Source: Alphaproteobacteria bacterium
Lineage (GTDB): Bacteria; Pseudomonadota; Alphaproteobacteria; Micropepsales; Micropepsaceae
Length of the DNA stretch: 64,000 nt
Assembly: GCA_020852655.1 (NCBI GenBank)
Contig: JADZAI010000104.1
Coordinates: 1 to 64,000 of the forward strand
Direction of reading: 5' to 3'
Shown: positions 9,690-54,121 of the stretch, piece after piece
How the letters are laid out: each line of letters begins with the position of its first letter
Position numbering within the stretch: position 1 is the first letter of the stretch
Made by a program: the position numbers and the translations under genes
The notes under the pieces: model-generated
Told to the model about the DNA's origin: nothing
Database searches by the model: none
The model's input: the letters and a program-made list of their open reading frames with translations, nothing else

Positions 9690-12168
9690 AGTCGTCGACC
9701 GTGAGCGTTCCGGTGCTGTTTTCGAGCTGGAACACCCAGTCCTGATTGGCCTGGTAACCGGCGACGCCGTTGGCGTCGACGACGAGGTAGATCGTGTTGG
9801 CGAGGTCCTGGTTGCCGCTGGTGGGGTCGAAGAGGATGGCCTGGCCGGCGGCGAGTTGGGCGGGGCCGATGGCGGCGGCAAGGTTGGCGTTGAAGGTGGC
9901 GGTGTTCAGGACGCCGCCCGTCACCTGCGCGGCGATTCCCGTGACGGTGCCCGGTAGGTCGATCTTGTCCTCGGCGTTGAAGTCGATGCGGTCGATGACG
10001 TCGCGGGTGACGCCGGTCGAATCGTTCAGAATGGTGAACACCAGGATATCGTGGTCACCGTCGACTCCGGGGATGAGCTTGTCGCGCTGGGTGCCGCCGA
10101 TGAGGCGGTCGGTGCCGGCGCCGCCCTGAAGCGTGTCGCCGCCGGCTGCAGCGGTGATGGTATCGTTGCCGGCGCCTCCGGCGAGGAGGTTGTTGCCGGT
10201 GTTGCCGTTGATCTGGTTGGCGAGCGCATTCCCGGTGCCGTTGATCGCCGCGGTGCCCGTCAGGACGAGGCGCTCCAGATGGGTGCCGAGGGTGTAGGTA
10301 ACGTTGCTGCGGACCGTGTCGGTGCCTTCGCCTGGGTTCTCGACGACGGTATCGCCGGCGGAGACCACATAGGTGTCATTGCCGCGGCCGCCGACCAGGC
10401 GGTTGGGGAGCGTGTTGCCGATGAGGGTATCGTTGCCGATGCCGCCATAGGCGTCCTCGATGAAGGTGCCGGCCGCGATGGTGAGCGCTTTGCCGGCGAT
10501 CGTGCTGATCGCACCGGGGTTCAGGTCGATGATGGAGTTGCCGCCGACCGCGGCGGCGACGATCCCGTCACGGCCGCCATTCGTAGCGGTAACGGTGCCA
10601 TGGCCGTCGATACCGGCGAAGCGCGCATACTCGTCGGTGAAGACATAGCGGTCGCCGGCGTCGTCGCGGCCCCAGACGTTGAGGACGATGTCGCTGACGG
10701 AGAGTGCCGTCGCGAAGCTGCGCGCGTAGCGGTCGACGACTTTCACCGACCATTGGCCCGCGGCACGCTCACCGCGGAAGGCCTGACTTTCGAACGTCCA
10801 GGTGCCGGCGAACAGGCCGTCGCTGGCTGCGCCGTCAACGAGCATGCTGGTGGCGCCGTCGGGCGAGGTGACGATGACGACGAGGTCTTCGGTGCGCGCA
10901 GCCGAAAAGGTGAGCGTCACGGTGACGCGCTCGACCTCGACATCGGCGGCGATGCCGGCGGTGAAGACCGTGCCCGAGGCATTGCCGTCAGGGATCGTCA
11001 CCGTCGCGTCCAGCATGTCGGCCGAGGCATGATGTTCGTTGGCCGAGGTCTGCGCGGGCAGCACGTCGAGCCAGGTTTCGGCGAGGCGGACGGCGGCCGT
11101 CGCATCGACGAGGCCGTAGCCGTAGTCGTTGCTGAAATGGAGCGCGCCGCCGTTCCACGTGCCCGCGCCATTCCATTCCCACGGGTAGCGCAGGTGGACG
11201 CGGTATTCCGCCGGCCCATCGCCGACGCGCCGGGCGGTCATGGCAAGGATGGACTGCACGTCGCGCCAGCCGAGGCCGGGCTCGGCCTCGTACATCAGCG
11301 CGACGACGCCGGCCACCATCGGTGCCGCCGCCGAGGTGCCGCCGAAATTGTAGTAATAGTCGCCCGCGACATAGCCGGCGAAGGTACCGGGATCGAACGG
11401 GTTCTCGCCGACGCGGTCGGTCGTGAGGATATTCGTCACGCCGAAGGCCGATACGAGCAGCGCCGAGCCATAGGTGGAGAAGTCGGTGACGAAGCCGTCC
11501 TGTTCGAGGGCCGCGACATTCACCTGGCGCGTATCCTGGCCCCAATTGTCGGAATTGAGATCGCCGCGCCAGTTGCCGGCGGCTTTGACGATGGTCATGC
11601 CGAGCCCGCCGCGTCCGCTGGTGGTGGCGAAGGCGATCGCGGCGTCGATGTCGGCGAAGAGCGACGCGGAATAGCCGTCGTTATAGCTGCCAATGCCGGT
11701 ATAGCTGCCAATGCCGGTGCCGACGATGGTGCGGCTCATATTGGCGATGTCGGCATCGGCGAGCGCGGCCGCGTCGTGTATCGTCCGCGCGGTTTCGACG
11801 AGATAGCGGTTCGTAAGGTAGGGATAGCTCGAATAGCCGACGAGGCTGGTGCCGAACGCGACGCCGACGGTTCCAACGCCGTTGGCCGCAGCGCCGATGA
11901 GGCCCGCGACCGCGGTGCCGTGATTGACGTTCGACGCCGCAAAGGCGTCGGGCACGCCGTCCCAATAGCCGTAGTCGAGATCGCGGTCGTAGTTCGGGTC
12001 GAGATCGGGGTGGGTGTAGTCGAAGCCGTCGTCGATCACCACGGTGCGCGTGCCGGCGCCCGAATAGCCGAGTTGCCAGGCGCCTGCGACGTTCAGGTCG
12101 TACAGGCCGTCGCCGGTCTGGCGCAGATGCCACTGGCCGCCGAGCAACGGATCGTTCGGTATGGGCAC
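9682..12168 (-). CDS. RTX subtilisin-like serine protease with P-domain, type I secreted
   Basis: An 828-residue S8 protease. The triad is Asp in [14 protein letters not shown] (about residue 46), His in NHGTAVAGL (about 83) and Ser in [12 protein letters not shown] (about 279), with oxyanion Asn in KAAGN. A P/proprotein-convertase domain follows (about 375-500), then RTX nonapeptides ([15 protein letters not shown]) and a tail of about 130 residues ending TLTVDDFM, typical of type I secretion signals. There is no N-terminal signal peptide. I take GTG 12168, preceded by GGAGGA; a TTG at 12219 is also in frame but has no ribosome site. Codons near 11690-11720 hold an in-frame 18-bp tandem duplication (TGIGSY twice). 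Confidence 0.87.
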
Positions 12169-12302
12169 GCTTCCTCCGCACGGCCCCGTGTCTTGCGCAC
12201 GGGCTGCGGGAGCGCCCAAGGGCCGCGTGTAATTGTCGCGGCCCGTTCCGGGCGGTCAACCGGTTTCGCTGAGGCCGATGGGCGCAGGCAGCGCCCGCTC
12301 GT

Positions 12303-14762
12303 TCAGATGAAGTCGTCCACCGTAAGCGTTCCGGTGTGGTTTTCGAGCTGGAACACCCAGTCCTGGTTGGCCTGGTAGCCGGCGACGCCGTTCGCGTCGA
12401 CGACGAGGTAGACCATGCCGGTCTGGTCGAGGTCGCCACCGTTCGGGTCGAAGAGGACGGCCTGGCCGGCCGGTAGTGCGGCGGCGTTTACCGCAGCGGC
12501 GAGGTCGGCGTTGAAGGTCGCTGTCGACAGGGTGCCTGTTGCGATCATGGACGCGATCGCCGTCGGGATGCCCGTCGACAGGTCGATCTTGTCCTCGCCG
12601 TTCAGGTCGATCCGGTCGATCACGTCGCGGGTGACGCCGGTGGAGTCGTTCACGATGTTGAAGATCAGAACGTCCTGATCGCCGTCAACGCCGGGGATGA
12701 GCTTGTCGCGCTGGGTGCCGCCGGTGAGGCGGTCGGCCCCTGCGGCGCCCTGGAGCGTATCGCCGCCGGCGCCGCCGAGCAGGCTGTCGTTGCCGTCGAG
12801 ACCAATGATCTGGTTGTTGGCGGTGTTGCCGTTGATCTGGTTGGCGAGTTCGTTGCCGGCGCCGTTGATCGCGCTGGTGCCGGTGAGGAAGAGGCGTTCG
12901 ACATTGGCCGCAAGGGCGGCGACGGTTGTGTCGCTTTGCACGGTGTCGGTACCGCCGCCGGCTGCCTCGACGATCGTGTCGCCGCTGGTGATGACGTAGG
13001 TGTCGTTCCCGGCGCCGCCGGTCAGGGTGTCGGTGCCGTCGCCGCCGGTCAGCGTGTCATTGCCGTTGCCGCCCCTGAGGGTGTCGTTCCCGGCGCCGCC
13101 GTCGATCCGGTCGTTGCCGGTCCAGCCGACGATGTCGTCGTTGCCCGCGCCGGTCGTCACCTGGAGGCGTTCGAAGCCGCTGAAGGTGATGCTGCTGTCG
13201 AAGGAATTGGAGATGACGGTGGCGTTCGAGACGAAGCTTCCGCCCGCGGCGGAATAGTCGACGATCAGGAGATCGTCGCCGCTACCGCCCACCGCGGTAT
13301 CGTTGCCGCCGCCGACACCGATCGTGTCGTTCCCGGCGCCGCCGTCGATCGAGTCGCTTTTCCCGTTGGCGTAGGTGAGAAAGCTGTCGTTGCCGGCGCC
13401 GCTGGTGACGTAGAGGGCCTCGATGCTGGTGATGCTGTTGCCGCTGCCGATGTTCTGGACGCCGGCGAGGGCGGCGTCGAAGGCGAAGGCCTGGCTGAAG
13501 GCCGAGAGGTCGGCGCGCCAGGTGTCGATGCCCGCGCCGCCGTTGATGGTCGCGGCGCCCGCGGCGGAGTTGAGGTCGTCGTTGCCGTCGCCGCCGGTGA
13601 TCGTGTCGCCATTGTCGCCGGTGCGGATGACGTCGTCGAACTTGGTGCCGGTGACGTCGAAGCGGTCGACGCCGGTGAAGACGACAGCGCCTTCGATGCG
13701 GCCGCCGGTGAAGAACTGCCCCGAGAAGCCGCTCGCGTCGGGGGCGAAGGCGCCGTCCGAGCTGAGACCGTAGATCGTGGCACCGCTGAAGTCGGCGATC
13801 AGGAGGTCGTCGCCGGTGCCGCCCTCGAAGCGGTCCTCGCCCTGAGCGAGGCTGATGGTGTCATTGCCGGCGCCGCCGATAAGGGTGTCGTTCAGCGCCC
13901 CTATGGACGTGATGATGAAGTCGTTGCCGGCGCCGAGCTTCAGCTCGACGGCCTCGATATTGGTTACGTGGCCGACGCCAATATAGATATTGGACCGCAT
14001 GTCGAACGTCATGCCAAGGGCCCCGTTGTCTCCCGACTGGTCGGCGATCCAGCGGTCCGCGCTGCCGGCCCCGCCGTCGATCGTGTCGTCCCCCTTGCCG
14101 CTGTTCAGCGTATCGTTGCCGGCTCCGCCCGCGAGCGTGTCGTTGCCATTGCCGCTGCGGATATCGTCGGCGAACTGTGTGCCGGTGATCCGGAAGCGGT
14201 CGACGCCGCTGAAGATAACGCCGCCCTCTAGCCCCCCGCCCGTGTAAAACTGTCCGGAATAGCCGTCAGACCCGCTCGTCAGCGTAGCCGAGCTGACGCC
14301 ATAGGCGGTCGCGTAGCTGAAGTCGGCAACGAGCATGTCTACGCCCGATCCGGCGTTGAACGTATAGTTGCCCTTGGCATAGGTCAGGATGTCGTTGCCG
14401 CCGAGGCTGTTGACGGTGTGATCCCCCATTCCGAGGAGGATCGAGTCACTGCGGTCGCTCGTGGTGAGGTTCGTGCCGCCGCCCCCGGCGACCCATTGGA
14501 TCAGGTTTGACGGGGTGAAGTTTGCGAAGGTGAAGGCCGATCCGTTGAAGCTGTTGCTGTTCACAGAGAAGCGAAGCACGTTCGAGAACTGGTTGTTCGT
14601 GAACAGGGCGTCGAGCGGCTGCGGCCCCTGGGAACTGAACTGTGATGTTTGGACCAGGGCAGTCGTCAGGGCCGACGTCGCGAAGGTCATCCCGTCGCCG
14701 GTGATGTCCACCCCGCGGAGATCCACCACCCCGCCCGCGCCCGTGATGTTGTAAGCGGCCAT
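12303..14762 (-). CDS. RTX calcium-binding repeat protein, type I secreted, no enzymatic domain seen
   Basis: An 819-residue protein starting [11 protein letters not shown] at ATG 14762 (GGAG upstream). It has at least seven blocks of RTX nonapeptides (GGxGNDxL), interleaved with two copies each of two larger modules: one of the type YGxSS...[10 protein letters not shown]...[12 protein letters not shown], the other of the type WxADxS...[16 protein letters not shown]. The C-terminal 130 residues closely match the tail of the adjacent protease and end TLTVDDFI. Such proteins fold on calcium outside the cell and serve as adhesins or surface-layer components. Role unknown. Confidence 0.85.
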
Positions 14763-18607: not shown

Positions 18608-19405
18608 ATGTACAAGTTCGACTATCACCGGCCGTCGTCGCTGAACGATGCGGCCAAGCTGTTCTCGGGCGCGGGCGACCCGAAATTCATGAGCGGCGGG
18701 CAGACGCTGATCCCCACGATGAAGCAGCGGCTCGCGGCGCCGTCCGACGTGATCGACCTCGGCGGCCTCGCCGAACTGAAGGGCATCACGGTGTCAGGCG
18801 GTGTCGTGACGATCGGCGCGGGCACGCGTCACGAGGCGGTGCAGAACTCGGCCGAGGTGGCGAAGGCCATCCCTGCCCTCGCCGATCTCGCCGGGATGAT
18901 CGGCGACCCCGCCGTGCGCCACCGCGGCACGATCGGCGGCTCGATCGCCAATGCCGACCCGTCGGCGGATTATCCCGCGGCGGTCGTCGCGCTGAACGCG
19001 ACGGTGCACACGACCAAGCGGACGATCACGGCGGACGCGTTCTTCACCGGCATGTTCGAGACGGCGCTGGAGCCGGGCGAGATCGTGACGAAGATCGCGT
19101 TCCCGGTGCCGGAGAAGGCGGGCTACGAGAAATTCCGCAACCCCGCCTCGCGCTACGCGATGGTCGGGGTGTTCGTGGCGAAGACGGCCGGCGGCGTACG
19201 CGTCGCGGTGACGGGCGCGGCGCCGAGCGTGTTCCGGCAGAGCGACATGGAAGCGGCGCTGGCGAAGCGTTTTTCGGCGGACGCGGTGGCCGGGGTGAAG
19301 CAATCGGCCGATGGGATGAACGCGGACCTGCACGGCAGCGCGGAATACCGGGCGCATCTGGTGACGGTCATGGCGAAGCGCGCGGTGGCGAAGGCGGTGG
19401 GGTAG
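18608..19405 (+). CDS. coxM: FAD-binding medium subunit of the molybdenum hydroxylase
   Basis: A 265-residue protein of the CO-dehydrogenase/xanthine-dehydrogenase FAD family, with FAD-pyrophosphate loops AKLFSGAGDPKFMSGGQTL and VRHRGTIGGSIANADPSADYP, and a CODH-type C-terminal domain. It accepts electrons from CoxS and passes them to quinone or another acceptor. A ribosome site AATAGGGAA lies before the ATG. The gene ends the coxSL-x-M run. Convergent repeats A1/A2 follow and separate it from the opposite-strand DMT gene. Confidence 0.92.
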   Translation: MYKFDYHRPSSLNDAAKLFSGAGDPKFMSGGQTLIPTMKQRLAAPSDVIDLGGLAELKGITVSGGVVTIGAGTRHEAVQNSAEVAKAIPALADLAGMIGDPAVRHRGTIGGSIANADPSADYPAAVVALNATVHTTKRTITADAFFTGMFETALEPGEIVTKIAFPVPEKAGYEKFRNPASRYAMVGVFVAKTAGGVRVAVTGAAPSVFRQSDMEAALAKRFSADAVAGVKQSADGMNADLHGSAEYRAHLVTVMAKRAVAKAVG

Positions 19406-19436
19406 TTGCTCGGCCGATCAGTGCGGTTCAGCCGGC

Positions 19437-19490
19437 GTGCGTGGCTCGAGGCTCGGTGGCGGACGCCACCGAGCACCTCACCATGGCAAG
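19437..19490 (+). repeat. REP-like palindromic repeat, copy A1
   Basis: 54 bp beginning GTGCGTGGCTCGAGG and ending CACCTCACCATGGCAAG, with an internal hairpin CTCGGTGGC/GCCACCGAG. Copy A2 follows 25 bp later in opposite orientation, in the gap between the convergent coxM and DMT genes. Confidence 0.88.
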
Positions 19491-19515
19491 TATTTTGTTG
19501 GGCTTCATAAAACTT

Positions 19516-19567
19516 CTGCCATGGTGAGGCGCTCGAACGCGGAGCGGTCGAGCCTCGAACCACGCAC
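19516..19567 (-). repeat. REP-like palindromic repeat, copy A2
   Basis: Minus-strand copy (GTGCGTGGTTCGAGGCTCG...GCGCCTCACCATGGCAG), inverted relative to A1 so that the CCATGGCA ends face each other. The pair could form a long hairpin and terminate transcription from both sides. Confidence 0.85.
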
Positions 19568-19571
19568 GCTT

Positions 19572-20498
19572 CTAGGCGCTTTTCGCCCGCTGCATTTGGG
19601 CTTCGCGCAGGGTGATGTAGGCGCCGGCGCTGAAGATGATGGCGCCGCCGAGAAGGACGAAGGCGTCCGGCAGGCGGGCGAAGATGAGATAGCCGTAGGT
19701 CGACGACCACAGGAGCTTGGTGAAGTCGAGCGGCAGGACAGCGGACATCTCGGCGTAGCGGAAAGCCTGGGCGAAGATATACTGGCCGAGCGTCGCGGTG
19801 GCGCCGACGGTGCAGAGCAAGGCGAGCTGGGCCGGGTTGGGCGTGACCCAGACGGGGACCGCCAGGACTGCTGCAAGCGGCGTGAGGACGAGGCCGATAT
19901 AGAGCGACTGCGTGAGGGCGCTCTCGGTCTGCGACAGGTTGCGGATCATGAGCAGCACCGCCGCCCAAAGGACGTTGGCGAGCAGCATCAGCAGGTGGCC
20001 GTCGGTGACTTCGGCGAAGCCCGGCCGGAGCGCGACGAGGGCGCCGAGGAAGCCGACCGCCATCGCGATCAGGCGGCGGGTGCGGACGACCTCGCCGAAG
20101 AAGAGCATCGCGAGAAGGGTCGCGAAGATCGGCGAGGTGAATTCGAGCGCGTTAGCTTCCGTAAGGGTCACCGCCGGCGAGGCGATCCCGGTGAAGAAGC
20201 AGATCATCGAGCCCGCCTGGACCAGGCTGCGCAGGACATGAAGACCCGCCTTGGACGTGCGCAGCGCCGTCGCGGCGGAGAAGGCGAACGGGGCGAGGAG
20301 GACGAGCGAGAGGCTGCTGCGGAACAGCACCGTCTCGATGGGCGGGATGCCGCTCTCGGCCAGGAGCTTGATGATGGCGTTGCCGGTCATGAACAGGAAG
20401 GCCGAGGCGGCCATGCAGGCCATGCCGACAAGCGTGTTCCGCCTGACCGGCGCGCCAGCTTTCGCCGCTGCGCCGGCTGATTTAACCTCGGCTTCCAT
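19572..20498 (-). CDS. DMT-superfamily (EamA) transporter
   Basis: A 308-residue membrane protein with ten predicted transmembrane segments in two EamA repeats (FMTGNAIIKLL... and LLANVLWAAVLLMIRNL...). The EamA families export amino acids or other small metabolites; the substrate is unknown. The ATG at 20498 is shared in the palindrome CATG with the start of the divergent coxD gene. It lies antisense within the cox locus, and a link to it is not established. Confidence 0.85.
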   Translation of the reverse strand: MEAEVKSAGAAAKAGAPVRRNTLVGMACMAASAFLFMTGNAIIKLLAESGIPPIETVLFRSSLSLVLLAPFAFSAATALRTSKAGLHVLRSLVQAGSMICFFTGIASPAVTLTEANALEFTSPIFATLLAMLFFGEVVRTRRLIAMAVGFLGALVALRPGFAEVTDGHLLMLLANVLWAAVLLMIRNLSQTESALTQSLYIGLVLTPLAAVLAVPVWVTPNPAQLALLCTVGATATLGQYIFAQAFRYAEMSAVLPLDFTKLLWSSTYGYLIFARLPDAFVLLGGAIIFSAGAYITLREAQMQRAKSA

Positions 20499-21405
20499 GA
20501 CCCCGTCCCTGCCGCAATCCATCGACCAGACTTCGGCGCTGCTGTCCACCCAGGGCTATGTCGCCGACCGGGCCCTGAGCGTGTCGGTCTTCCTGGCGCT
20601 GAAGATGGGGAAGCCGCTGTTCCTGGAGGGTGAACCGGGCACCGGGAAGACCGAGATCGCGAAGGTGCTGGCGAGCGCGCTGGGGCGGCGGTTGCTGCGG
20701 CTGCAATGCTATGAGGGACTGGACGCGGCGTCGGCGGTGTATGAGTGGAACTACGCCGCGCAGATGATCGAGATACGGCTGGCGGAAGCGGCGCATGCGA
20801 GCCGCGAGACGGTGCAGACCGAAATCTTCTCCGAGCGCTTCCTCATCAAGCGGCCGCTGCTGGAGGCGCTGGAGCCGCAGGCGGGCGGGCCGCCGGTGCT
20901 GCTGATCGACGAGCTCGACCGGGCGGACGAGCCGTTCGAGGCGTTCCTGCTGGAGATACTCTCCGACTTCCAGGTGACGGTGCCGGAGACGGGGACGATC
21001 AGGGCGGCCGAGCCGCCGATCGTCATCATCACGTCGAACCGGACACGCGAAATACACGACGCGGTGAAGCGGCGCTGCCTCTATCACTGGGTCGACTATC
21101 CCTCGCTGGCGCGCGAGCTGGAGATATTGAAGGCCAAGGCGCCGGAGTTACCCGCCGAGCTGTCGCGGCAGGTGGCGGCCTTCGTGCAGACGCTGCGCGG
21201 CGAGGATCTGTTCAAGAAGCCGGGGGTCGCCGAGACGATCGACTGGGCGGCGGCGCTGGCGGCGCTGGATGCGGTGGAGCTGACGCCGGAGGTGATCCGC
21301 GATTCGATCGGCGTGCTGCTGAAATATCAGGACGACATCGCCACGCTGACCAGCGGCGAGACGGCGCGGCTGATCGACGAAGCCAGGATGCGGGCGGCGG
21401 CGTGA
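20497..21405 (+). CDS. coxD: CoxD-like MoxR AAA+ ATPase
   Basis: A 302-residue MoxR-family AAA+ protein with Walker A GEPGTGKTE, Walker B VLLIDELDRAD and sensor 1 IITSNRTREI. In Oligotropha CoxD helps build the sulfido/copper site of CO dehydrogenase, with CoxE as partner. The ATG at 20497 overlaps the divergent DMT start by two bases, so its promoter must lie within the DMT gene. The stop overlaps coxE by 4 bp (GTGA). Confidence 0.9.
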   Translation: MTPSLPQSIDQTSALLSTQGYVADRALSVSVFLALKMGKPLFLEGEPGTGKTEIAKVLASALGRRLLRLQCYEGLDAASAVYEWNYAAQMIEIRLAEAAHASRETVQTEIFSERFLIKRPLLEALEPQAGGPPVLLIDELDRADEPFEAFLLEILSDFQVTVPETGTIRAAEPPIVIITSNRTREIHDAVKRRCLYHWVDYPSLARELEILKAKAPELPAELSRQVAAFVQTLRGEDLFKKPGVAETIDWAAALAALDAVELTPEVIRDSIGVLLKYQDDIATLTSGETARLIDEARMRAAA

Positions 21406-22595
21406 GCCGGCTTGGCGCCAATGTCGTGCATTTCGCGCGGCTGCTGCGTTCGGCCGGCGTACCCGTCGGGCCGGGCCAGGCGCTGGCGGCGGCGCGGGCG
21501 GTGGGGCTTGCCGGTGTCGACGACAAGCTCGCGCTGCGCCAGGCGCTGTTCGCGACGCTGGTGACGCGGCGCGCGCAGATGCCGCTGTTCGACCAGGCCT
21601 TCGAGCTGTTCTGGCGCGATCCGCAGATGGCCGGACGCGCGATGGCGATGCTGATGCCGATGCAGAAGCCGGAGATGGAGCCGGCGAAGGTGGCGGGCGC
21701 GCGGCGTCTGGCGGAGGCGCTGAACGAAGGGCGCGGGCCGCAGAAGGAAGCGGGCGAGCAGCTCGAAATCGACATGACGCTGACCGCGTCGGCCGATGAG
21801 GTGCTGCGCCAGAAGGATTTTGAGCAGATGAATTCGGCGGAGCTTGCCGATGCGCGGCGTATGGTGGAGCGGCTGCCGCTGGAGATCGAAGCGGTGGAGA
21901 CGCGCCGCTGGGCGGCCGCGGTGCATGGGCAACGCATCGATCTCAGGCGCACGCTGCGCCAGTCGCTGCGGGCGGGCGGCGGGATCATCCGCCTTGCCGA
22001 GGCGCGCCGCCGGGTGCAGCCGCCGCCGATCGTGGCGCTCTGCGACATCTCGGGCTCGATGGCGAAATACGCCCGCGTGTTCCTGCACTTCCTGCATGCG
22101 CTGACCGAAGCGCGCCGGCGGCGCGGGCAGCGCGTCTCGACCTTCGTCTTCGGGACGCGGCTGACCAATGCGACGCGGGCGCTGAAGCATCGCGACATCG
22201 ACGAGGCACTGGACGCGGTCGGGCGCGACGCGGGCGATTGGGGCGGCGGCACGCGCATCGGCACGGCGCTGAAGGACTTCAATTTCCGCTGGTCGCGCCG
22301 CGTGCTGGGCCAGGGCGCGGTGGTGCTGCTGATCACCGACGGGCTCGACCGCGACGAGGCGGGCGTGCTGGGCATCGAGGCGGAGCGGCTGGCGCGCTCG
22401 TGCCGGACGCTGATCTGGCTCAATCCCCTGCTCCGCTACGCCCAGTTCCAGCCGCGGGCGTCGGGCATTCGCGCGTTGCTGCCGCATGTGGACCGGTTCC
22501 TGCCGCTCTATAGTGTGGAGACGCTGGCCGACCTGTCGCGCGAACTTGCCAGTTCCGGCCGGCGGGGCCATCTCGGATTGCGGCAAGCGGCGTGA
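21402..22595 (+). CDS. coxE: CoxE-like VWA-domain protein
   Basis: A 397-residue protein with an N-terminal helical region and, from about residue 205, a VWA domain with the MIDAS motif DISGSM and a second metal-site region LLITDGLDRDE. It works with the MoxR ATPase CoxD in maturing molybdenum hydroxylases. The GTG start at 21402 overlaps the coxD stop. Repeats B1/B2 follow immediately downstream. Confidence 0.9.
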   Translation: MSRLGANVVHFARLLRSAGVPVGPGQALAAARAVGLAGVDDKLALRQALFATLVTRRAQMPLFDQAFELFWRDPQMAGRAMAMLMPMQKPEMEPAKVAGARRLAEALNEGRGPQKEAGEQLEIDMTLTASADEVLRQKDFEQMNSAELADARRMVERLPLEIEAVETRRWAAAVHGQRIDLRRTLRQSLRAGGGIIRLAEARRRVQPPPIVALCDISGSMAKYARVFLHFLHALTEARRRRGQRVSTFVFGTRLTNATRALKHRDIDEALDAVGRDAGDWGGGTRIGTALKDFNFRWSRRVLGQGAVVLLITDGLDRDEAGVLGIEAERLARSCRTLIWLNPLLRYAQFQPRASGIRALLPHVDRFLPLYSVETLADLSRELASSGRRGHLGLRQAA

Positions 22596-22611
22596 CCATA
22601 TGGCTTACACT

Positions 22612-22669
22612 CTTGCCATGGTGGGGGTGCGACCCCGGACTTGATCCGGGGGAGCCTCGAACAACGCAT
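22612..22669 (-). repeat. REP-like palindromic repeat, copy B1 (divergent core)
   Basis: Minus-strand copy beside coxE. The outer ends match the family (ATGCGTTGTTCGAGGCT and CACCATGGCAAG), but the central hairpin is replaced by CCCCGGATCAAGTCCGGGG. It lies back to back with B2, opposite to the orientation of pairs A and C. Confidence 0.75.
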
Positions 22670-22680
22670 TGGCGGCGGGT

Positions 22681-22734
22681 GTGCGTGGTTCGAGGCTCGA
22701 CCGCTGCGCGGCCGCGCACCTCACCATGGCAGGA
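22681..22734 (+). repeat. REP-like palindromic repeat, copy B2
   Basis: 54 bp, GTGCGTGGTTCGAGGCTCGACCGC...GCGCACCTCACCATGGCAGGA. It ends 20 bp upstream of the first XdhC-type gene, so that gene's leader lies next to the repeat. Confidence 0.88.
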
Positions 22735-22754
22735 GCTTTGAATTGGAGACAGCG

Positions 22755-23087
22755 ATGGACGACGACAAGGTTCTGGAGCAGGCGGAGGCCTGGCTGTCGG
22801 AGGGGCGCAAGGTGGCGCTGGCGACAGTGGTGAAGACCTGGGGCTCGGCGCCGCGGCCGGCAGGGAGCCAGTTCGCGATCAACGACGCGGGGGCCTTCGT
22901 CGGCTCGGTCTCGGGCGGCTGCATCGAAGGCGCCGTCGCCGCCGAGGCGAAGGAGTCGATGAAGGACGGCAAGGTGCGCAAGCTCTCGTTCGGCGTGACG
23001 AACGAGCAGGCGTGGGAAGTCGGCCTCGCCTGCGGCGGGCAGATCGAGGTCTTCGTTGAGCCGGTAGCCTGGGAGCCTGTGCAGTGA
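22755..23087 (+). CDS. XdhC/CoxI N-terminal-domain protein
   Basis: A 110-residue protein equal to the N-terminal XdhC_CoxI domain, with VVKTWGSAPRPAGSQFAI, GSVSGGCIEGAVAAEA and GLACGGQIEVFVEP. XdhC proteins bind and sulfurate the molybdenum cofactor before insertion. ATG 22755 has GGAGAC upstream. The stop overlaps the next gene, which encodes the Rossmann half, so the XdhC function is split over two coupled genes. Confidence 0.87.
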   Translation: MDDDKVLEQAEAWLSEGRKVALATVVKTWGSAPRPAGSQFAINDAGAFVGSVSGGCIEGAVAAEAKESMKDGKVRKLSFGVTNEQAWEVGLACGGQIEVFVEPVAWEPVQ

Positions 23088-23767
23088 AGCTTGCGACGCT
23101 GAAGGCGCTGACGGCGGCGCGCGCGCAAGGGCGCGAGATCGCGGTCGCGACGCGGCTCGCGGACGGCGAGGAGCGGCTGATCGACCTGACCGAGCCGCCT
23201 TGCGACGATCTGGAAGGGCTCGCGGTGCGCATGGCGGCGCGCGACGACAGTGCGCCTGTGGAGTTGATGGGCGAGACCTGGTTCATCAACGTGTTCAACC
23301 CGCCGGTCGCGCTGGTCGTGGTGGGCGCGGTGCATATCGCACAGCCACTGAGCCGGATGGCGGCGGCGCTGGGCTGGGCCGTGACGGTGATCGATCCGCG
23401 CACGGCCTTTGCCAGCGAAGCACGCTTCCCGGGAGTGACGCTGACGCATGACTGGCCGGACGAGGCGATCGCGAAGGTCGCACCGACGACACGCACGGCG
23501 GTCGTGACGCTGACGCATGATCCCAAGCTCGACGATCCCGCGCTCCAGGCCGCGCTGAAGAGCCGGGCCTTCTTCATCGGCTCGCTGGGCTCGAAGAAGA
23601 CGCACGCGGCGCGGCTGGCGCGGCTGGAGGCGGCCGGGTTCAACGAGGAGACGCTGTCGCGCATCCGCGGGCCGGTGGGGCTCAACATCAATGCGCGGTC
23701 GCCGGCGGAAATCGCGGTGTCGATCGTCGGCCAGATCGTCGAAACGCTGCGCGCAGGGTCGAAGTGA
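23084..23767 (+). CDS. XdhC Rossmann-domain protein
   Basis: A 227-residue protein corresponding to the C-terminal half of XdhC: VALVVVGAVHIAQPLSRMA begins the Rossmann fold, followed by VTVIDPRTAFA, TLTHDPKLDDPAL and FIGSLGSKKTHAARLARL. It is translationally coupled at both ends (GTGA overlaps) to the N-terminal XdhC gene and to the MoeA/MobA fusion. Likely role: loading sulfurated molybdenum cofactor into CoxL. Confidence 0.88.
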   Translation: MKLATLKALTAARAQGREIAVATRLADGEERLIDLTEPPCDDLEGLAVRMAARDDSAPVELMGETWFINVFNPPVALVVVGAVHIAQPLSRMAAALGWAVTVIDPRTAFASEARFPGVTLTHDWPDEAIAKVAPTTRTAVVTLTHDPKLDDPALQAALKSRAFFIGSLGSKKTHAARLARLEAAGFNEETLSRIRGPVGLNINARSPAEIAVSIVGQIVETLRAGSK

Positions 23768-25380
23768 GGTTTGAAACAATCAGGGTCGAGGACGCTGTCG
23801 GCGCCATCCTGGCCCACGGCATCCAGCACGGCGAGGCGCGCTTCAAGAAGGGCCGCGTGCTGACGGCGGCCGACACCGCGGCGCTGGCCGCGGCGGGGGT
23901 GAGCGAAGTGACGGTCGCGCAGCTCGACGCGGACGACGTGCCGGAAGACGAAGCGGCAGCGCTGCTGGCCGAGGCGCTGGCGGGCGACGGCGTGCGCGTG
24001 GCGTCGGCGTTCACGGGCCGGGCCAATCTCTATGCGACGGTGCCGGGCGTCTTCACGGTGAAGGCCGAGGCGATCGATGCGATCAACGCGGTGGACGAGG
24101 CAATCACCGTCGCCACCCTGCCCGCCTTCGACGAAGTCATGGCGCGGGCGATGCTGGCGACGATCAAGATCATCCCCTACGCGGTAAAGCGCGCGTCGCT
24201 GAATGCGACACTGGCGCTGGCGCGTGCGCTGGGGCCGGTGATGGAGGTCTCGCCCTATCGGCCCTTGCGCGTCGGACTGGTCTCGACCTCCCTGCCGCAG
24301 ACGAAGGCTTCGATCCATGCCAAGAACCGTGCGACGCTGGAAGCGCGGCTGGCGGCCGCCAGGGCGCCCGTCGTGGCCGACGAAATCGTGCCGCACGAGG
24401 CCGGCGCGGTGGGCGATGCCGTGCGGCGCGCGCTCGCGGCGAAGGCGGAGCTGGTGCTGATCTATTCGGCCTCGGCGATTGCCGACCGGCGCGACGTGGT
24501 GCCTGACGGTATCGTTCGCGCCGGCGGCGAGGTACTGCGCTTCGGCATGCCGGTCGATCCGGGCAATCTGCTGCTGCTGGCGCGCAAGGGCGAGGTGCCG
24601 GTTGTGGGCTTGCCCGGCTGTGCGCGCTCTCCGAAGATGAACGGGTTCGATTGGGTGCTTCAGCGCCTGCTTGCGGGGCTGCCAGTGAGCGAGGGCGATG
24701 TCGGCCGCATGGGCGTCGGCGGACTGTTGAAGGAGATTCCTTCGCGGCCGCAGCCGCGCGACAAGGCGGCGCCGGCGGTCAAGAGCGCCGCACGGATCGC
24801 GGCGGTGGTGCTGGCTGCGGGGCAGTCGCGCCGCATGGGCGCGCCGAAGCAGCTCGCTGTCATCGGCGGCATGCCGATGTTGCGGCGGACCGTCGAGCAG
24901 GTGCGCGCGAGCGGGGTCGACGAGATAGTGGTGGTCACGGGACATGAGGCCGAGGCGGTGGGCACGGCGCTGAAGGGGCTGCCGGTGACGCTGGTGCGCA
25001 ATCCGGATTATGCGCTGGGGCTGAGCACATCGCTGAAGGCGGGGCTGGCGGCGCTGGACGAGGACGTCGATGGGGCGCTGATCGTGCTGGGCGACATGCC
25101 GGGCGTCGGGGCCGGGGACATCGACCGCATGCTGGCGGCGTTCGATCCGGCCGAAGGGCGCGGCATCGTGGTGCCGGTGCATGCGGGCAAGCGCGGCAAT
25201 CCTGTGCTGTGGGCGGCGGCCTATTTCCCCGAGATGGCGCGGGTGAGCGGCGACACCGGCGCGAAGCATCTGCTGGCGGAGTTCGCGGAAGCCGTGTGCG
25301 AGGTGGAACTGGGCGACGGGGTGCTCACCGACATCGACACGCCGGAGCAACTCAAGGCATTCACGGATGCGCGCGCATGA
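23764..25380 (+). CDS. MoeA-like molybdopterin-binding domain fused to MobA-like nucleotidyltransferase
   Basis: A 538-residue two-domain protein. Residues 1 to about 335 resemble MoeA/MogA-type molybdopterin-binding domains (FKKGRVLTAADTAALAAAGV, LIYSASAIADRRDVVPDGI, GNLLLLARKGEVPVVGLPGCARSPK). Residues about 348-538 are a MobA/MocA nucleotidyltransferase (VVLAAGQSRRMGAPKQL, VLGDMPG). MocA-type enzymes make the cytosine dinucleotide form of the cofactor that this hydroxylase family uses, so the fusion probably finishes the cofactor for CoxL. GTG start, coupled upstream; the stop overlaps the SufU-like gene. Confidence 0.88.
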   Translation: MRFETIRVEDAVGAILAHGIQHGEARFKKGRVLTAADTAALAAAGVSEVTVAQLDADDVPEDEAAALLAEALAGDGVRVASAFTGRANLYATVPGVFTVKAEAIDAINAVDEAITVATLPAFDEVMARAMLATIKIIPYAVKRASLNATLALARALGPVMEVSPYRPLRVGLVSTSLPQTKASIHAKNRATLEARLAAARAPVVADEIVPHEAGAVGDAVRRALAAKAELVLIYSASAIADRRDVVPDGIVRAGGEVLRFGMPVDPGNLLLLARKGEVPVVGLPGCARSPKMNGFDWVLQRLLAGLPVSEGDVGRMGVGGLLKEIPSRPQPRDKAAPAVKSAARIAAVVLAAGQSRRMGAPKQLAVIGGMPMLRRTVEQVRASGVDEIVVVTGHEAEAVGTALKGLPVTLVRNPDYALGLSTSLKAGLAALDEDVDGALIVLGDMPGVGAGDIDRMLAAFDPAEGRGIVVPVHAGKRGNPVLWAAAYFPEMARVSGDTGAKHLLAEFAEAVCEVELGDGVLTDIDTPEQLKAFTDARA

Positions 25381-25799
25381 GTGAAGATCTGTACCAGAAG
25401 GCGCTGCTGCGCCTCGCGGCGAGCGCACATGGCGCGGGAAGGCTGCACGGCGACTGCTGCTCGGGCCGCGAGGCGAACGCAATGTGCGGCGACAGTGTGG
25501 TGTTCGACGCGCGGGTGGATGGCGCCGCGCGGATCACCGAGGTCGCGAACGAGCTGAAGGGCTGCGTGCTGGTGCAGGCGTCGGCTTCGCTGCTGGCCGA
25601 GCATGCGGTGGGCCGGAGCGCGGCGGAGGTTGCAGCCTTGCGGGCCGATGTGGCGGCGATGCTCGAAGGCGGCGCGGTGCCCGGCGGGGTCTGGGCGGGG
25701 TATGAGGTGTTCAAACCCGCCGCAGCCTACAAAAGCCGGCACTCCTGCGTGCTGCTGCCGATCGACGCACTGGCGAAGGCGCTGGAGGGGTGTGGGTAG
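25377..25799 (+). CDS. NifU/SufU-like Fe-S cluster scaffold of the cox locus
   Basis: A 140-residue protein with the three IscU/SufU ligand Cys in the expected contexts: AMCGDSV, LKGCVLVQASAS and RHSCVLLP. Such proteins assemble Fe-S clusters, here plausibly for the two [2Fe-2S] sites of CoxS. The ATG overlaps the MoeA/MobA stop by 4 bp, and it is the last gene of the maturation operon. Repeats C1/C2 follow. Confidence 0.85.
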   Translation: MSEDLYQKALLRLAASAHGAGRLHGDCCSGREANAMCGDSVVFDARVDGAARITEVANELKGCVLVQASASLLAEHAVGRSAAEVAALRADVAAMLEGGAVPGGVWAGYEVFKPAAAYKSRHSCVLLPIDALAKALEGCG

Positions 25800-25813
25800 G
25801 ATTTCGGTTGTTC

Positions 25814-25866
25814 GTGCGTAGTTCGAGGCCCGACCGCTTCGCGGTCGCGCACCTCACCATGGCAAG
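25814..25866 (+). repeat. REP-like palindromic repeat, copy C1
   Basis: 53 bp, GTGCGTAGTTCGAGGCCCGACCGC...GCGGTCGCGCACCTCACCATGGCAAG, with hairpin CGACCGC/GCGGTCG. It begins 14 bp after the SufU-like stop. C2 follows in inverted orientation after 64 bp of AT-richer DNA. Confidence 0.88.
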
Positions 25867-25930
25867 ACAATTTGGTAGGGACTAGACAATCGTCGCGCGC
25901 TCTACTTAACGAAACCCAAAATCACCCTCT

Positions 25931-25978
25931 TTGCCATGGTGAGGTGCCCGGCCTACGGCCGGGCCTCGAACCACGCAC
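25931..25978 (-). repeat. REP-like palindromic repeat, copy C2, left flank of the GIY-YIG gene
   Basis: Minus-strand copy of 48 bp with its own hairpin core CCCGGCC/GGCCGGG. Its GTGCGTGG end lies 14 bp before the GIY-YIG start codon. The repeat is open in the frame of the gene, with an in-frame ATG at 25936 inside the conserved CCATGG. Confidence 0.88.
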
Positions 25979-25992
25979 GTACGCTTGACACC

Positions 25993-26322
25993 ATGTCCGA
26001 CCCACCTAACGCTAGTCCTATGATTAACGGTGCGTGGGTCTATATTCTGCTGTGCGCTGACGGCAGCTATTATGTTGGATCGACCACCGACGATCCCGGG
26101 GTTCGCACGAGCAAGCACAACGAGGGCGTATATGGCGGATACACCGCGCTACGCCGGCCCGTGAAATTGATCTTCCAAGAGGATTTCGCAGACATCAGGC
26201 AAGCACAAGCCTTTGAGCAGCAGGTCAAGCGCTGGTCGCGCGCCAAGAAGGAGGCATTGATCCGGCGTGATTGGGACGCGCTACCGGCGTTGTCAAGACG
26301 CCGAGGTGGCAAGCAGCGCTGA
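25993..26322 (+). CDS. GIY-YIG nuclease domain protein bracketed by inverted repeats
   Basis: A 109-residue single-domain protein of the small GIY-YIG (UPF0213-like) group: VYILLCADGSYYVG carries the GIY and YIG Tyr positions, RTSKHNEG the catalytic Arg, and AFEQQVKRWSRAKK the metal-binding Glu followed by a basic helix. All key residues are present, so it should be an active nuclease. Neither ATG 25993 nor ATG 26020 has a clear ribosome site, and the frame stays open into repeat C2. The stop is 7 bp before repeat D. Its target is unknown; the flanking repeats suggest it acts on them. Confidence 0.8.
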   Translation: MSDPPNASPMINGAWVYILLCADGSYYVGSTTDDPGVRTSKHNEGVYGGYTALRRPVKLIFQEDFADIRQAQAFEQQVKRWSRAKKEALIRRDWDALPALSRRRGGKQR

Positions 26323-26329
26323 TGTGCCG

Positions 26330-26382
26330 GTGCGTGGTTCGAGGCCCGCCCGCTTCGCGGTCGCGCGCCTCACCATGGCAAG
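26330..26382 (+). repeat. REP-like palindromic repeat, copy D, right flank of the GIY-YIG gene
   Basis: 53 bp, GTGCGTGGTTCGAGGCCCGCCCGC...GCGCGCCTCACCATGGCAAG, with core hairpin CCGC/GCGG. It lies in the gap before the opposite-strand enoyl-CoA hydratase and is inverted relative to C2, so the same repeat end points at the nuclease gene from both sides. Confidence 0.88.
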
Positions 26383-26407
26383 GTCTTTGCTTTTGGACCA
26401 CCGCAGA

Positions 26408-27178
26408 TCAGCGGAACTTCGGTGCCCGCTTTTCCTTGAACGCGGCGACGCCTTCCTGGTGGTCGGTGCTGATGAAGCTGAGGGATTGGAAACTGCGTTC
26501 GAGGTCGAGGGCGTGTTCGAGGGTCGTCGGCTCGGCGTTCAGCATGCGCTTGAGGAGCGTCTGGGCGCCGGCGGGCTGGGCGGCGAGTTTCTGTGCGAGC
26601 GCGAGGGCGGATTGCTGGACGTCGGCGTCGGGGACGACGTCGTCGAAAAGACCGAGCTTCAGGGCTTCGTCGGACTTCAGCGTCTTCGCCTGCATCAGGA
26701 TGAGGCGCGCGGGGCCGAAGCCGATGCGCTGGGGCAGCGTATGCGCGATGCCGTAGTCGGGCACGAGGCCGAGATTGAAGAAGGGAAAGCCGATCTTCGC
26801 GCCCTGCCCCGCGACTATCGCGTCGCACAGCAGCGCGAGGCCGGCGCCGGCGCCCATGGCGAAGCCTTCGACCGCGGCGACCACGGGCTTCGAGGCGCCA
26901 TGCAGGCGGCGCACGACGATATGGTTCTTGAGCATGCGGTCGGAGCCGGTGCGCTCATTGTAGCTGCCCATGGTCGCGACATCGCCGCCGGCACAGAAGG
27001 TGCCGCCCTTGCCCGTGATGATCAGCGCACGGACGGTTTCGTCCTCCAGCGCCTCGTCAAGCACCTGGTAGAAGGCGTCGCGCGTCGCCGTGTCGAACGG
27101 GTTGCGCTTGTCGGGGCGGTTCAGCGCGATGCGCAGGACGCGCGCGTCAGGCCGGTCGATAACGAGAAGATCGCTCAT
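26408..27178 (-). CDS. Enoyl-CoA hydratase/isomerase family protein
   Basis: A 256-residue crotonase-fold protein. The oxyanion-hole regions are RNPFDTATRDAF and GTFCAGGDVATMG; AVEGFAMGAGAGLALLCD and LGLVPDYG follow. The second canonical catalytic Glu position (usually PE.GL.P) reads LGLVPDYG, so it has one acid in a shifted context and may be an isomerase or another crotonase type. ATG 27178 is chosen because the family begins there. Monocistronic by position. Confidence 0.87.
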   Translation of the reverse strand: MSDLLVIDRPDARVLRIALNRPDKRNPFDTATRDAFYQVLDEALEDETVRALIITGKGGTFCAGGDVATMGSYNERTGSDRMLKNHIVVRRLHGASKPVVAAVEGFAMGAGAGLALLCDAIVAGQGAKIGFPFFNLGLVPDYGIAHTLPQRIGFGPARLILMQAKTLKSDEALKLGLFDDVVPDADVQQSALALAQKLAAQPAGAQTLLKRMLNAEPTTLEHALDLERSFQSLSFISTDHQEGVAAFKEKRAPKFR

Positions 27179-52324: not shown

Positions 52325-54121
52325 ATGGCACTCTGGACACCCGGACCCGGCGCGACCGACGGCAATGACACCTATGTCGCCGACAGCGGCGGCGGCTACG
52401 CCTTCGCGCTCGCCGGCAACGATACGCTGACCGGTGCGGAGGGCGACGACCAGCTCGAGGGTGGGCTGGGCGACGATTCGATCGACGGCGGCGCCGGCAG
52501 CAACGACTATGTGAGTTATTTCCAGTCCGGCGGCCCCATCACCGTCAACCTGGCGCTCACCGGTCCGCAGGCCACCGGCATCGACGGCCTCGACACCATC
52601 GTCAATGTCGAGAACATCTGGGGCTCGTTCTTCAGCGATACGCTGACCGGAAACGACGGCAACAACCTCATCGAAGGGTTCGGCGGCAACGACACCATGG
52701 ACGGCGGCGCCGGCCTCGACCAGGTGAGCTATTTCAATGCCGGCGCGGGCGTGACCGTGAATCTGTCGCTCACCACGGCCCAGGACACCGGCGGCGAGGG
52801 AATCGACACGCTGTCGAATTTCGAGGACCTCTACGGCTCGAACTTCGTCGACGTCCTGACCGGAAACGGCGGCGACAACCGCATCAACGGCGCCGGCGGC
52901 AACGACCGGATCGACGGCGGCGACGGCACGGACGTGCTGAGCGGCGGCGACGGAGACGACACGCTCATCGGCGGCAACGGCTACGATACCGCCGACTATT
53001 TCTTCGCTGCGGCGGCCGTGAAGGTGAACCTCGCCGCGACCACGCCCCAGGCGACCGGCGGCGCCGGCACCGACACGCTTTCGGGGATCGAGGCCATCCT
53101 GGGCTCGGCGTTCAACGATACGCTGACCGGCGGCAACGGCGACGACCAGATCGAGGGCGCGGCAGGAGACGACCGCCTCAACGGCGGCGCCGGCATGCAT
53201 GACCGCGCCAGCTATTTCAACGCACCGGGCGCGGTCACGGTGAATCTCGGCATCTCGGGCCCGCAGAACACCGTCGGCGACGGCACGGATACGCTGACGA
53301 ATTTCGAGAATATCTACGGCTCGCGCTTCGGCGATACCCTCACCGGCAGCGGCGCGGCCAACGACCTCAGCGGCGATGCGGGCGACGATACGCTGAACGG
53401 CGCCGGCGGGAACGACACGCTGAATGGCGGCAGCGGCAACGACGTGATGAAGGTCGACTCCGCCGGCGACGTGGTGAACGAGGCCGTGGGCGGCGGCAAC
53501 GACCTCGTCGAGACCAAGGTCAGCTACACGCTGACGGCCGGCCAGGAGATCGAGACGCTGGTCACCGCCGCGCCGGCCGCGACGATGGCGCTCAACCTGA
53601 CCGGCAACGAGTTCGCCAACACGATCCGCGGCAATGCCGGGATCAACATCCTGACGGGCGGCGACGGCAACGACTCGCTGTTCAGCGGCTCCGGCAACGA
53701 TCACCTGAACGGCGGGCTAGGGCGCGACACGCTCGATCCGGGCACGGGCAGCGACGTCTTCGACTATACGGCCGTCGCAGAATCGACCGGCGCCAATCGC
53801 GACGTGATCCTCGGCTTCCGCGCCGACGGGCGGGACCGGATCAATCTCCCGACCGTGCCGACAGGGATCGACGCGAACCTGACGCAGGGCATCCTGCGCT
53901 CGGCCAGCTTCGACGCCGACCTGCGCGCCGCAGTCGGGGCGACCAAGCTGGCCGCCGGCCACGCGGTGCTGTTCGATCCGTCGAACGGCGATCTCAACGT
54001 CGCCGGCCATGTCTATCTGGTAGTCGACGCCAACGGCATCGCAGGCTACCAGCCGGGCAAGGATTATGTGTTCGAACTGGTCGACCCGGCGGGCGGGCCG
54101 ACGGCGGACTGGTTCGTTTAG
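52325..54121 (+). CDS. RTX calcium-binding repeat protein with four internal modules, type I secreted
   Basis: A 598-residue protein without signal peptide. RTX nonapeptides (GGxGDDxL/I) alternate with four copies of a module of about 50 residues of the type SYFNAGAGVTVNL...GTDTLxNFENIYGSxFxDTLTG. The C-terminal 130 residues (from about DPGTGSDVFDYTAV to TADWFV) align with the tails of the two RTX proteins at 9.7-14.8 kb and are the likely type I secretion signal. No enzymatic domain is seen. Possible surface or matrix protein. Confidence 0.87.
   Translation: MALWTPGPGATDGNDTYVADSGGGYAFALAGNDTLTGAEGDDQLEGGLGDDSIDGGAGSNDYVSYFQSGGPITVNLALTGPQATGIDGLDTIVNVENIWGSFFSDTLTGNDGNNLIEGFGGNDTMDGGAGLDQVSYFNAGAGVTVNLSLTTAQDTGGEGIDTLSNFEDLYGSNFVDVLTGNGGDNRINGAGGNDRIDGGDGTDVLSGGDGDDTLIGGNGYDTADYFFAAAAVKVNLAATTPQATGGAGTDTLSGIEAILGSAFNDTLTGGNGDDQIEGAAGDDRLNGGAGMHDRASYFNAPGAVTVNLGISGPQNTVGDGTDTLTNFENIYGSRFGDTLTGSGAANDLSGDAGDDTLNGAGGNDTLNGGSGNDVMKVDSAGDVVNEAVGGGNDLVETKVSYTLTAGQEIETLVTAAPAATMALNLTGNEFANTIRGNAGINILTGGDGNDSLFSGSGNDHLNGGLGRDTLDPGTGSDVFDYTAVAESTGANRDVILGFRADGRDRINLPTVPTGIDANLTQGILRSASFDADLRAAVGATKLAAGHAVLFDPSNGDLNVAGHVYLVVDANGIAGYQPGKDYVFELVDPAGGPTADWFV

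What the first reader, a model, noticed from the sequence alone, without database searches (positions are those of the whole stretch)
25814..26382. GIY-YIG nuclease gene framed by inverted REP-like repeats: a possible RAYT-like element with a different nuclease
Seen: repeat C2 (minus) ends 14 bp before the GIY-YIG gene and repeat D (plus) begins 7 bp after its stop, so the same repeat end faces the gene from both sides. C1 lies 64 bp further out. Four more copies occur within 7 kb and none were noticed elsewhere in the window. The nuclease keeps all GIY-YIG catalytic positions, and its frame runs into repeat C2. Known: in gammaproteobacteria REPs are spread by RAYT tyrosine transposases, whose genes sit between inverted REPs. 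Inference: a GIY-YIG protein may play that role here. I know of no described system of this kind.
Basis: partly seen in the sequence, partly recalled or inferred. Interest (0 to 1): 0.75.

Follow-up and report, generated by a model that had tools for sequence, protein, structure and literature searches.

The report
Nuclease gene paired with hairpin repeats
A small DNA-cutting enzyme gene sits among copies of a short hairpin-forming DNA repeat, and the same pairing recurs in distantly related bacteria, which suggests that the enzyme recognises the hairpin and may help the repeats spread.

Summary
A 100-aa GIY-YIG nuclease gene (26020-26322, +) lies between copies of a ~50-bp palindromic repeat (41 bp before it, 7 bp after it); seven copies lie in the window and about 35 in the genome. 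A second nuclease copy (82% identical) elsewhere in the genome is framed by the same repeat. Both gene-plus-repeat blocks are missing, leaving gaps of about 10-15 bp, at the matching sites of same-genus genomes. The repeat is a hairpin with a bulged TC: [arm]T-TC-GA..stem..TC-A[arm']. The core TTCGA..CTCA occurs within 400 bp of 40 of 53 related genes from several phyla, against 3 of 31 genes of a neighbouring GIY-YIG group, which has a different repeat. The outer arms change in sequence but keep pairing. Across 120 genomes repeat number follows gene presence. Own and same-genus genomes hold no Y1 (RAYT-type) transposase. So a nuclease with its own hairpin repeat is well supported; that it moves the repeats is inferred. 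It is not without precedent: from memory, the Ssn family (GIY-YIG, single-strand-specific, Neisseria repeats) is such a kind. Some genomes hold many repeats without the gene, and a gene subgroup has few or none nearby.

The parts
26020..26322 (+). GIY-YIG nuclease gene, 100 aa (alternative start ATG 25993)
   Evidence: PF01541 E 5.7e-16; catalytic residues conserved in 53 relatives; start by alignment with paralogues
25814..25864 (+). hairpin repeat C1
25932..25978 (-). hairpin repeat C2, inverted partner of C1
   Evidence: DNA fold with TC bulge, z -3.1
26330..26380 (+). hairpin repeat D
   Evidence: DNA fold with TC bulge, z -1.9
25789..26409 (.). block (C1, C2, gene, D) absent from the matching site of two same-genus genomes
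22614..22668 (-). degenerate repeat, half of an inverted doublet
22681..22731 (+). repeat, other half of the doublet; the doublet is absent in G003
19437..19488 (+). repeat, half of an inverted doublet
19517..19567 (-). repeat, other half of the doublet

Best explanation
The gene encodes a site-specific nuclease whose cognate site is the surrounding hairpin repeat. When the repeat is single-stranded (lagging strand, repair, incoming DNA) it folds into a hairpin with a bulged TC between two helices; the protein recognises the bulge and its GA/TC neighbours and cuts there. Repair of the cut from another copy would convert or seed repeats at new intergenic sites and would sometimes carry the gene along, giving gene-plus-repeat blocks, inverted doublets and copy numbers that follow the gene. 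Shown: the pairing, its clade specificity, the conserved bulged hairpin with covarying arms, gain/loss of whole blocks at clean sites, and absence of a RAYT. Inferred: binding, cleavage, single-strand specificity and role in dispersal.
For: Two of two clade-A genes in the own genome are framed by the repeat. In 53 clade-A loci from several phyla the core TTCGA..CTCA(GG/CC/AC) is 24.6-fold enriched in the 400-bp flanks, 40 of 53 loci, against 3 of 31 clade-B loci, Fisher p 2e-9. With pairing required, TTC-GA/TC-A ranks first among 1044 hairpin kinds seen; the TC bulge is confirmed. Outer pairs 1-3 are 81/78/72% paired, shuffled 48/43/40%, control 42/38/43%, with C-G, G-C and T-A all used. Copy number: median 21 in genomes with the gene, 0 without; one genome per other family, 5 of 6 against 1 of 42 with at least 5 copies. 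Clean empty sites for both own blocks. No PF01797 in 12 of 13 genomes searched. Catalytic residues conserved.
Against: No biochemistry. 13 of 53 clade-A genes lack the motif within 400 bp. A subgroup of the family with longer frames shows no repeat shared by both flanks, though several of them have one copy nearby. Eight genomes without a detected clade-A gene hold 13-40 copies. Orientation of repeats around the gene is not fixed. Presence/absence shows gain or loss, not a transposition mechanism, and no target-site duplication was identified. GIY-YIG nucleases only hydrolyse; joining would need host recombination.
Confidence: 0.6

Rival explanations
1. Ssn-like regulator of DNA exchange: the nuclease cuts single-stranded DNA at the repeats and modulates natural transformation or recombination, and the repeats are kept or spread for other reasons.
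For: The sister clade B in the same genomes is framed by GTCAT..ATCCA repeats; one of them, GTCATTCCCGCGAAAGCGGGAATCCA (L103), matches a sequence in the N. gonorrhoeae pilE upstream region (PMC7593972). From memory the Neisseria Ssn protein acts on repeats and modulates transformation.
Against: No competence data for these hosts; clean gene-block gains fit dispersal better; the Ssn paper could not be read here.
Confidence: 0.3
2. Repeats are inert intergenic palindromes and the gene merely rides with them through homologous recombination between copies; there is no recognition.
For: The two repeats around each own copy are often direct and near-identical, so recombination could move the gene. 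Repeats are intergenic in any case.
Against: Specificity: clade-A genes carry clade-A repeats and clade-B genes carry clade-B repeats in the same genomes; the core is conserved across phyla while the arms vary.
Confidence: 0.12
3. The repeats are classical REPs spread by a RAYT, and the nuclease is incidental.
For: Inverted doublets look like REPINs.
Against: No Y1 transposase in the own genome and none in any of four same-genus genomes, with the E. coli control ringing; no conserved GTAG beside the hairpin.
Confidence: 0.03

Closest known systems
Ssn family, GIY-YIG site-specific single-stranded nucleases (Neisseria meningitidis; Nat Commun 2025, from memory, not read here)
   Same: Small single-domain GIY-YIG protein with a genomic repeat as its presumed site; repeats abundant and intergenic.
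   Different: Neisseria-type repeats (GTCATTCCCGC..GCGGGAATC) resemble those of the other clade (B) found here; this clade (A) has a different repeat with a bulged TC core. Cleavage is untested, and whether the Ssn work already covers this clade is unknown to me.
RAYT/REP system (TnpA-REP, IS200/IS605-like Y1 transposases)
   Same: Short hairpin repeats, inverted doublets, gene framed by repeats, copy number following the gene.
   Different: Unrelated enzyme with no HUH/Y1 chemistry; no Y1 transposase in the own or same-genus genomes.
UPF0213 / YhbQ-type GIY-YIG proteins (PDB 1zg2, 1ywl)
   Same: Closest solved structures by sequence, E 2.7e-11 and 5.4e-11, same single-domain size.
   Different: No link to repeats that I recall; the relationship shown here is only sequence similarity.

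Membership tests
GIY-YIG nuclease superfamily (PF01541) | HMM match over the curated cut-off | tested here: met
   59 bits against cut-off 22.6
GIY-YIG nuclease superfamily (PF01541) | Catalytic Tyr, Tyr, Arg, His and Glu present | tested here: met
   Y18, R29, H33 and E66 invariant in 53 of 53, Y8 in 51 of 53 (its numbering is +2)
Ssn family | Genomic repeats that go with the gene | tested here: met
Ssn family | Site-specific cleavage of single-stranded DNA only | not testable with these tools
   needs purified protein
Ssn family | Falls with Neisseria Ssn in a protein tree | not tested
   Neisseria protein sequence and paper not available here; the clade-B repeat, not the clade-A repeat, resembles the Neisseria one
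RAYT/REP | Y1 (HUH) transposase | tested here: not met
   the protein is GIY-YIG; no PF01797 match in the own genome
RAYT/REP | Short palindromes flanking the gene and in inverted doublets genome-wide | tested here: met
   nine inverted neighbours with gaps of 24-75 bp among 35 copies
RAYT/REP | Conserved GTAG beside the hairpin | tested here: not met
   the other window copies read GTGG at that place; only C1 has GTAG
GIY-YIG homing endonuclease | Lies in an intron or intein of a conserved gene | tested here: not met
   intergenic; the neighbouring genes are adjacent at the empty sites

The most novel reading that the evidence does not exclude
A GIY-YIG counterpart of RAYT: a clade of small nucleases recognising a bulged-TC hairpin disperses its repeats, and sometimes itself, in many bacterial phyla, and is the source of the widespread CCTTCGACAAGCTCAGG and TTCGAG..CTCA repeats.
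Probability: 0.3. Interest if true: 0.85.

Novelty: new variant of a known kind. Interest (0 to 1): 0.62.

Why it matters
REP-like palindromes whose origin is unexplained are common in bacteria that lack RAYTs. If this clade is their enzyme, it gives a concrete protein/site pair, with a predicted recognition feature (TC bulge between covarying helices), that can be tested with one oligonucleotide assay. Site-specific single-strand nucleases are also rare and useful as tools.

Tried and rejected
The long reading frame through repeat C2 as real coding sequence: rejected, since homology begins at 26020 and the paralogue's upstream differs. RAYT as the driver: rejected. A defence-system assignment: no PADLOC match. 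An RNA element: no Rfam match in 19000-27000. NCBIfam: no family, even at E 10. The library does not hold the Ssn paper, and searches for repeat strings found only a Neisseria sequence. A Nocardioides copy-number test could not be run because loci are not accepted as centres. A fixed orientation rule for the repeats did not hold across loci. Structure prediction was not run: family placement was already clear from sequence.

Full report
Observation. The window holds seven copies of a ~50-bp palindromic repeat, all intergenic, at 19437-19567 (inverted doublet), 22614-22731 (inverted doublet) and 25814-26380 (C1+, C2-, gene, D+). The gene is best read as 26020-26322 (100 aa); an upstream ATG at 25993 is possible. 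The protein is a GIY-YIG domain and nothing else; the nearest solved relatives are the UPF0213 proteins 1zg2 and 1ywl. Y18, R29, H33 and E66 are invariant in all 53 relatives aligned, and Y8 in 51.

Own genome. The window is G000:C104. A paralogue with 82% identity lies at C76:75516-75815 and is also framed by the repeat, with five copies within about 0.8 kb. The relaxed repeat pattern has 35 hits and no hit for the reversed control. Nine pairs of neighbours are inverted, 24-75 bp apart, as in REPINs. A third, distant GIY-YIG gene (C9) is surrounded by a different repeat family. A fourth GIY-YIG hit lies in a 682-codon frame, probably uvrC (the name is inferred from length).

Gain and loss. 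In the same genus, window 25789-26409 is replaced by about 11 bp in G002 and about 15 bp in G003, between the same two neighbouring genes. The doublet at 22614-22731 is likewise missing in G003. The second block (C76) is replaced by about 10 bp in G002. In turn the site of G002's own gene copy carries no gene or repeat in G000. Gene-plus-repeat blocks have therefore come and gone as units at three separate sites in one genus. The direction of each change and the mechanism are not shown.

Generality. Relatives were taken from a genome-wide search and from related genomes. In many loci (Chloroflexota, Nocardioides, Treponema, Bacteroidota, KSB1, Rhodoplanes and others) the upstream and downstream 400 bp share a repeat beyond anything found by sliding the same geometry over the rest of the locus. 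The repeats differ in sequence between lineages but share one design. With hairpins enumerated without preset letters, the kind [arm]-TTC-GA..TC-A-[arm'] comes first among 1044 kinds in clade-A flanks: 51 occurrences in 24 of 53 loci, 23.7-fold over the rest of the same loci; it is not enriched around clade B. Equivalent view: T-A closes the outer helix, TC is a 2-nt bulge, GA/TC opens the inner helix, and DNA folding of five copies gives that bulge in four. Chosen by the core letters alone, hits near the gene have outer pairs 1-3 paired in 81, 78 and 72%, against 48, 43 and 40% after shuffling and 42, 38 and 43% for the same core away from the gene. C-G, G-C and T-A all occur, so the arms covary. 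The inner stems of the own-genome copies also differ from copy to copy; 17 of 32 distinct ones fold better than shuffles at p<0.05.

Specificity. The core TTCGA..CTCA(GG/CC/AC) is near 40 of 53 clade-A genes and 3 of 31 clade-B genes, while GTCAT..ATC(C)CA is near 18 of 31 clade-B genes and 8 of 53 clade-A genes. The split also holds inside single genomes (G031, G049, G051), with one clade-A gene in G033 as an exception. The two groups were first cut at 60 bits; the tree separates them except for two low-scoring members, one of them a fragment cut by a contig end, but the branch itself has no support value to lean on. If all hits away from the gene are assumed to lie in the 10-15% of DNA that is intergenic, the enrichment falls from 24.6-fold to about 2.5-3.7-fold; the clade-B comparison is the better control.

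Copy number. In 120 related genomes, those with a clade-A gene have a median of 21 copies of CCTTCGA..CTCAGGRT and the others 0 (Mann-Whitney p 5e-10). With one genome per other family, 5 of 6 against 1 of 42 have at least 5 copies. Phylogeny was not modelled. In the own genus the repeat of this window follows the gene: 35, 37 and 8 copies in the three genomes with the gene; 0 in G001 without it; G003, with a gene fragment at a contig end, has 0 of this form but 42 of the sister form. Exceptions: eight genomes without a detected clade-A gene have 13-40 copies.

Mechanism. The bulged hairpin exists only when the strand is single (or extruded), so a single-strand or hairpin-specific nuclease is the natural reading. 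Cutting followed by repair from another copy could spread repeats. This last step is inference. No Y1 transposase was found in 12 of 13 genomes searched, the own one and four of the same genus included.

Known kind. From memory, the Ssn family of GIY-YIG single-strand nucleases acts on repeats in Neisseria and has thousands of homologues; the paper was not held. The clade-B repeat at L103 shares GTCATTCCCGCGAAAGCGGGAATC with a Neisseria gonorrhoeae sequence printed in PMC7593972. This suggests, but does not prove, that clade B is the Ssn type and that clade A, the present gene, is a relative with another kind of site. I therefore file it as a new variant of a known kind.

Noticed in passing
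L080 (G000:C9:7858-8136 and about 1 kb either side): A distant GIY-YIG gene of the same genome sits inside a different repeat family (GTCATCCTCCGGCGCGCCGCC..GGCGCCGCGACCGGGGGACCCATGCCTGAG), several copies within 2 kb.
   Followed up: partly
L103 flanks: A clade-B GIY-YIG gene is framed by GTCATTCCCGCGAAAGCGGGAATCCAA, whose core matches a repeat upstream of gonococcal pilE (PMC7593972).
   Followed up: partly
L082; L081; L083: In the same genus two forms of the repeat coexist, GG-TTCGAG..CTCA-CC and CC-TTCGAG..CTCA-GG, a swap that keeps the outer helix paired; in G003 only the second form is found.
   Followed up: yes
window 10042-14151 and 52843-53715: Stretches about 65-78% alike to parts of L080 2940-4894; perhaps a repeat-rich protein family.
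   Followed up: no
L047 5001-5240: A distant GIY-YIG relative in Paludibacter is flanked by direct copies of about 107 bp that look like tRNA 3' parts, as if inserted at a tRNA gene.
   Followed up: no
G007, G055, G065, G039: Genomes with 17-40 copies of the sister repeat but no detected clade-A gene; gene loss or another driver.
   Followed up: no
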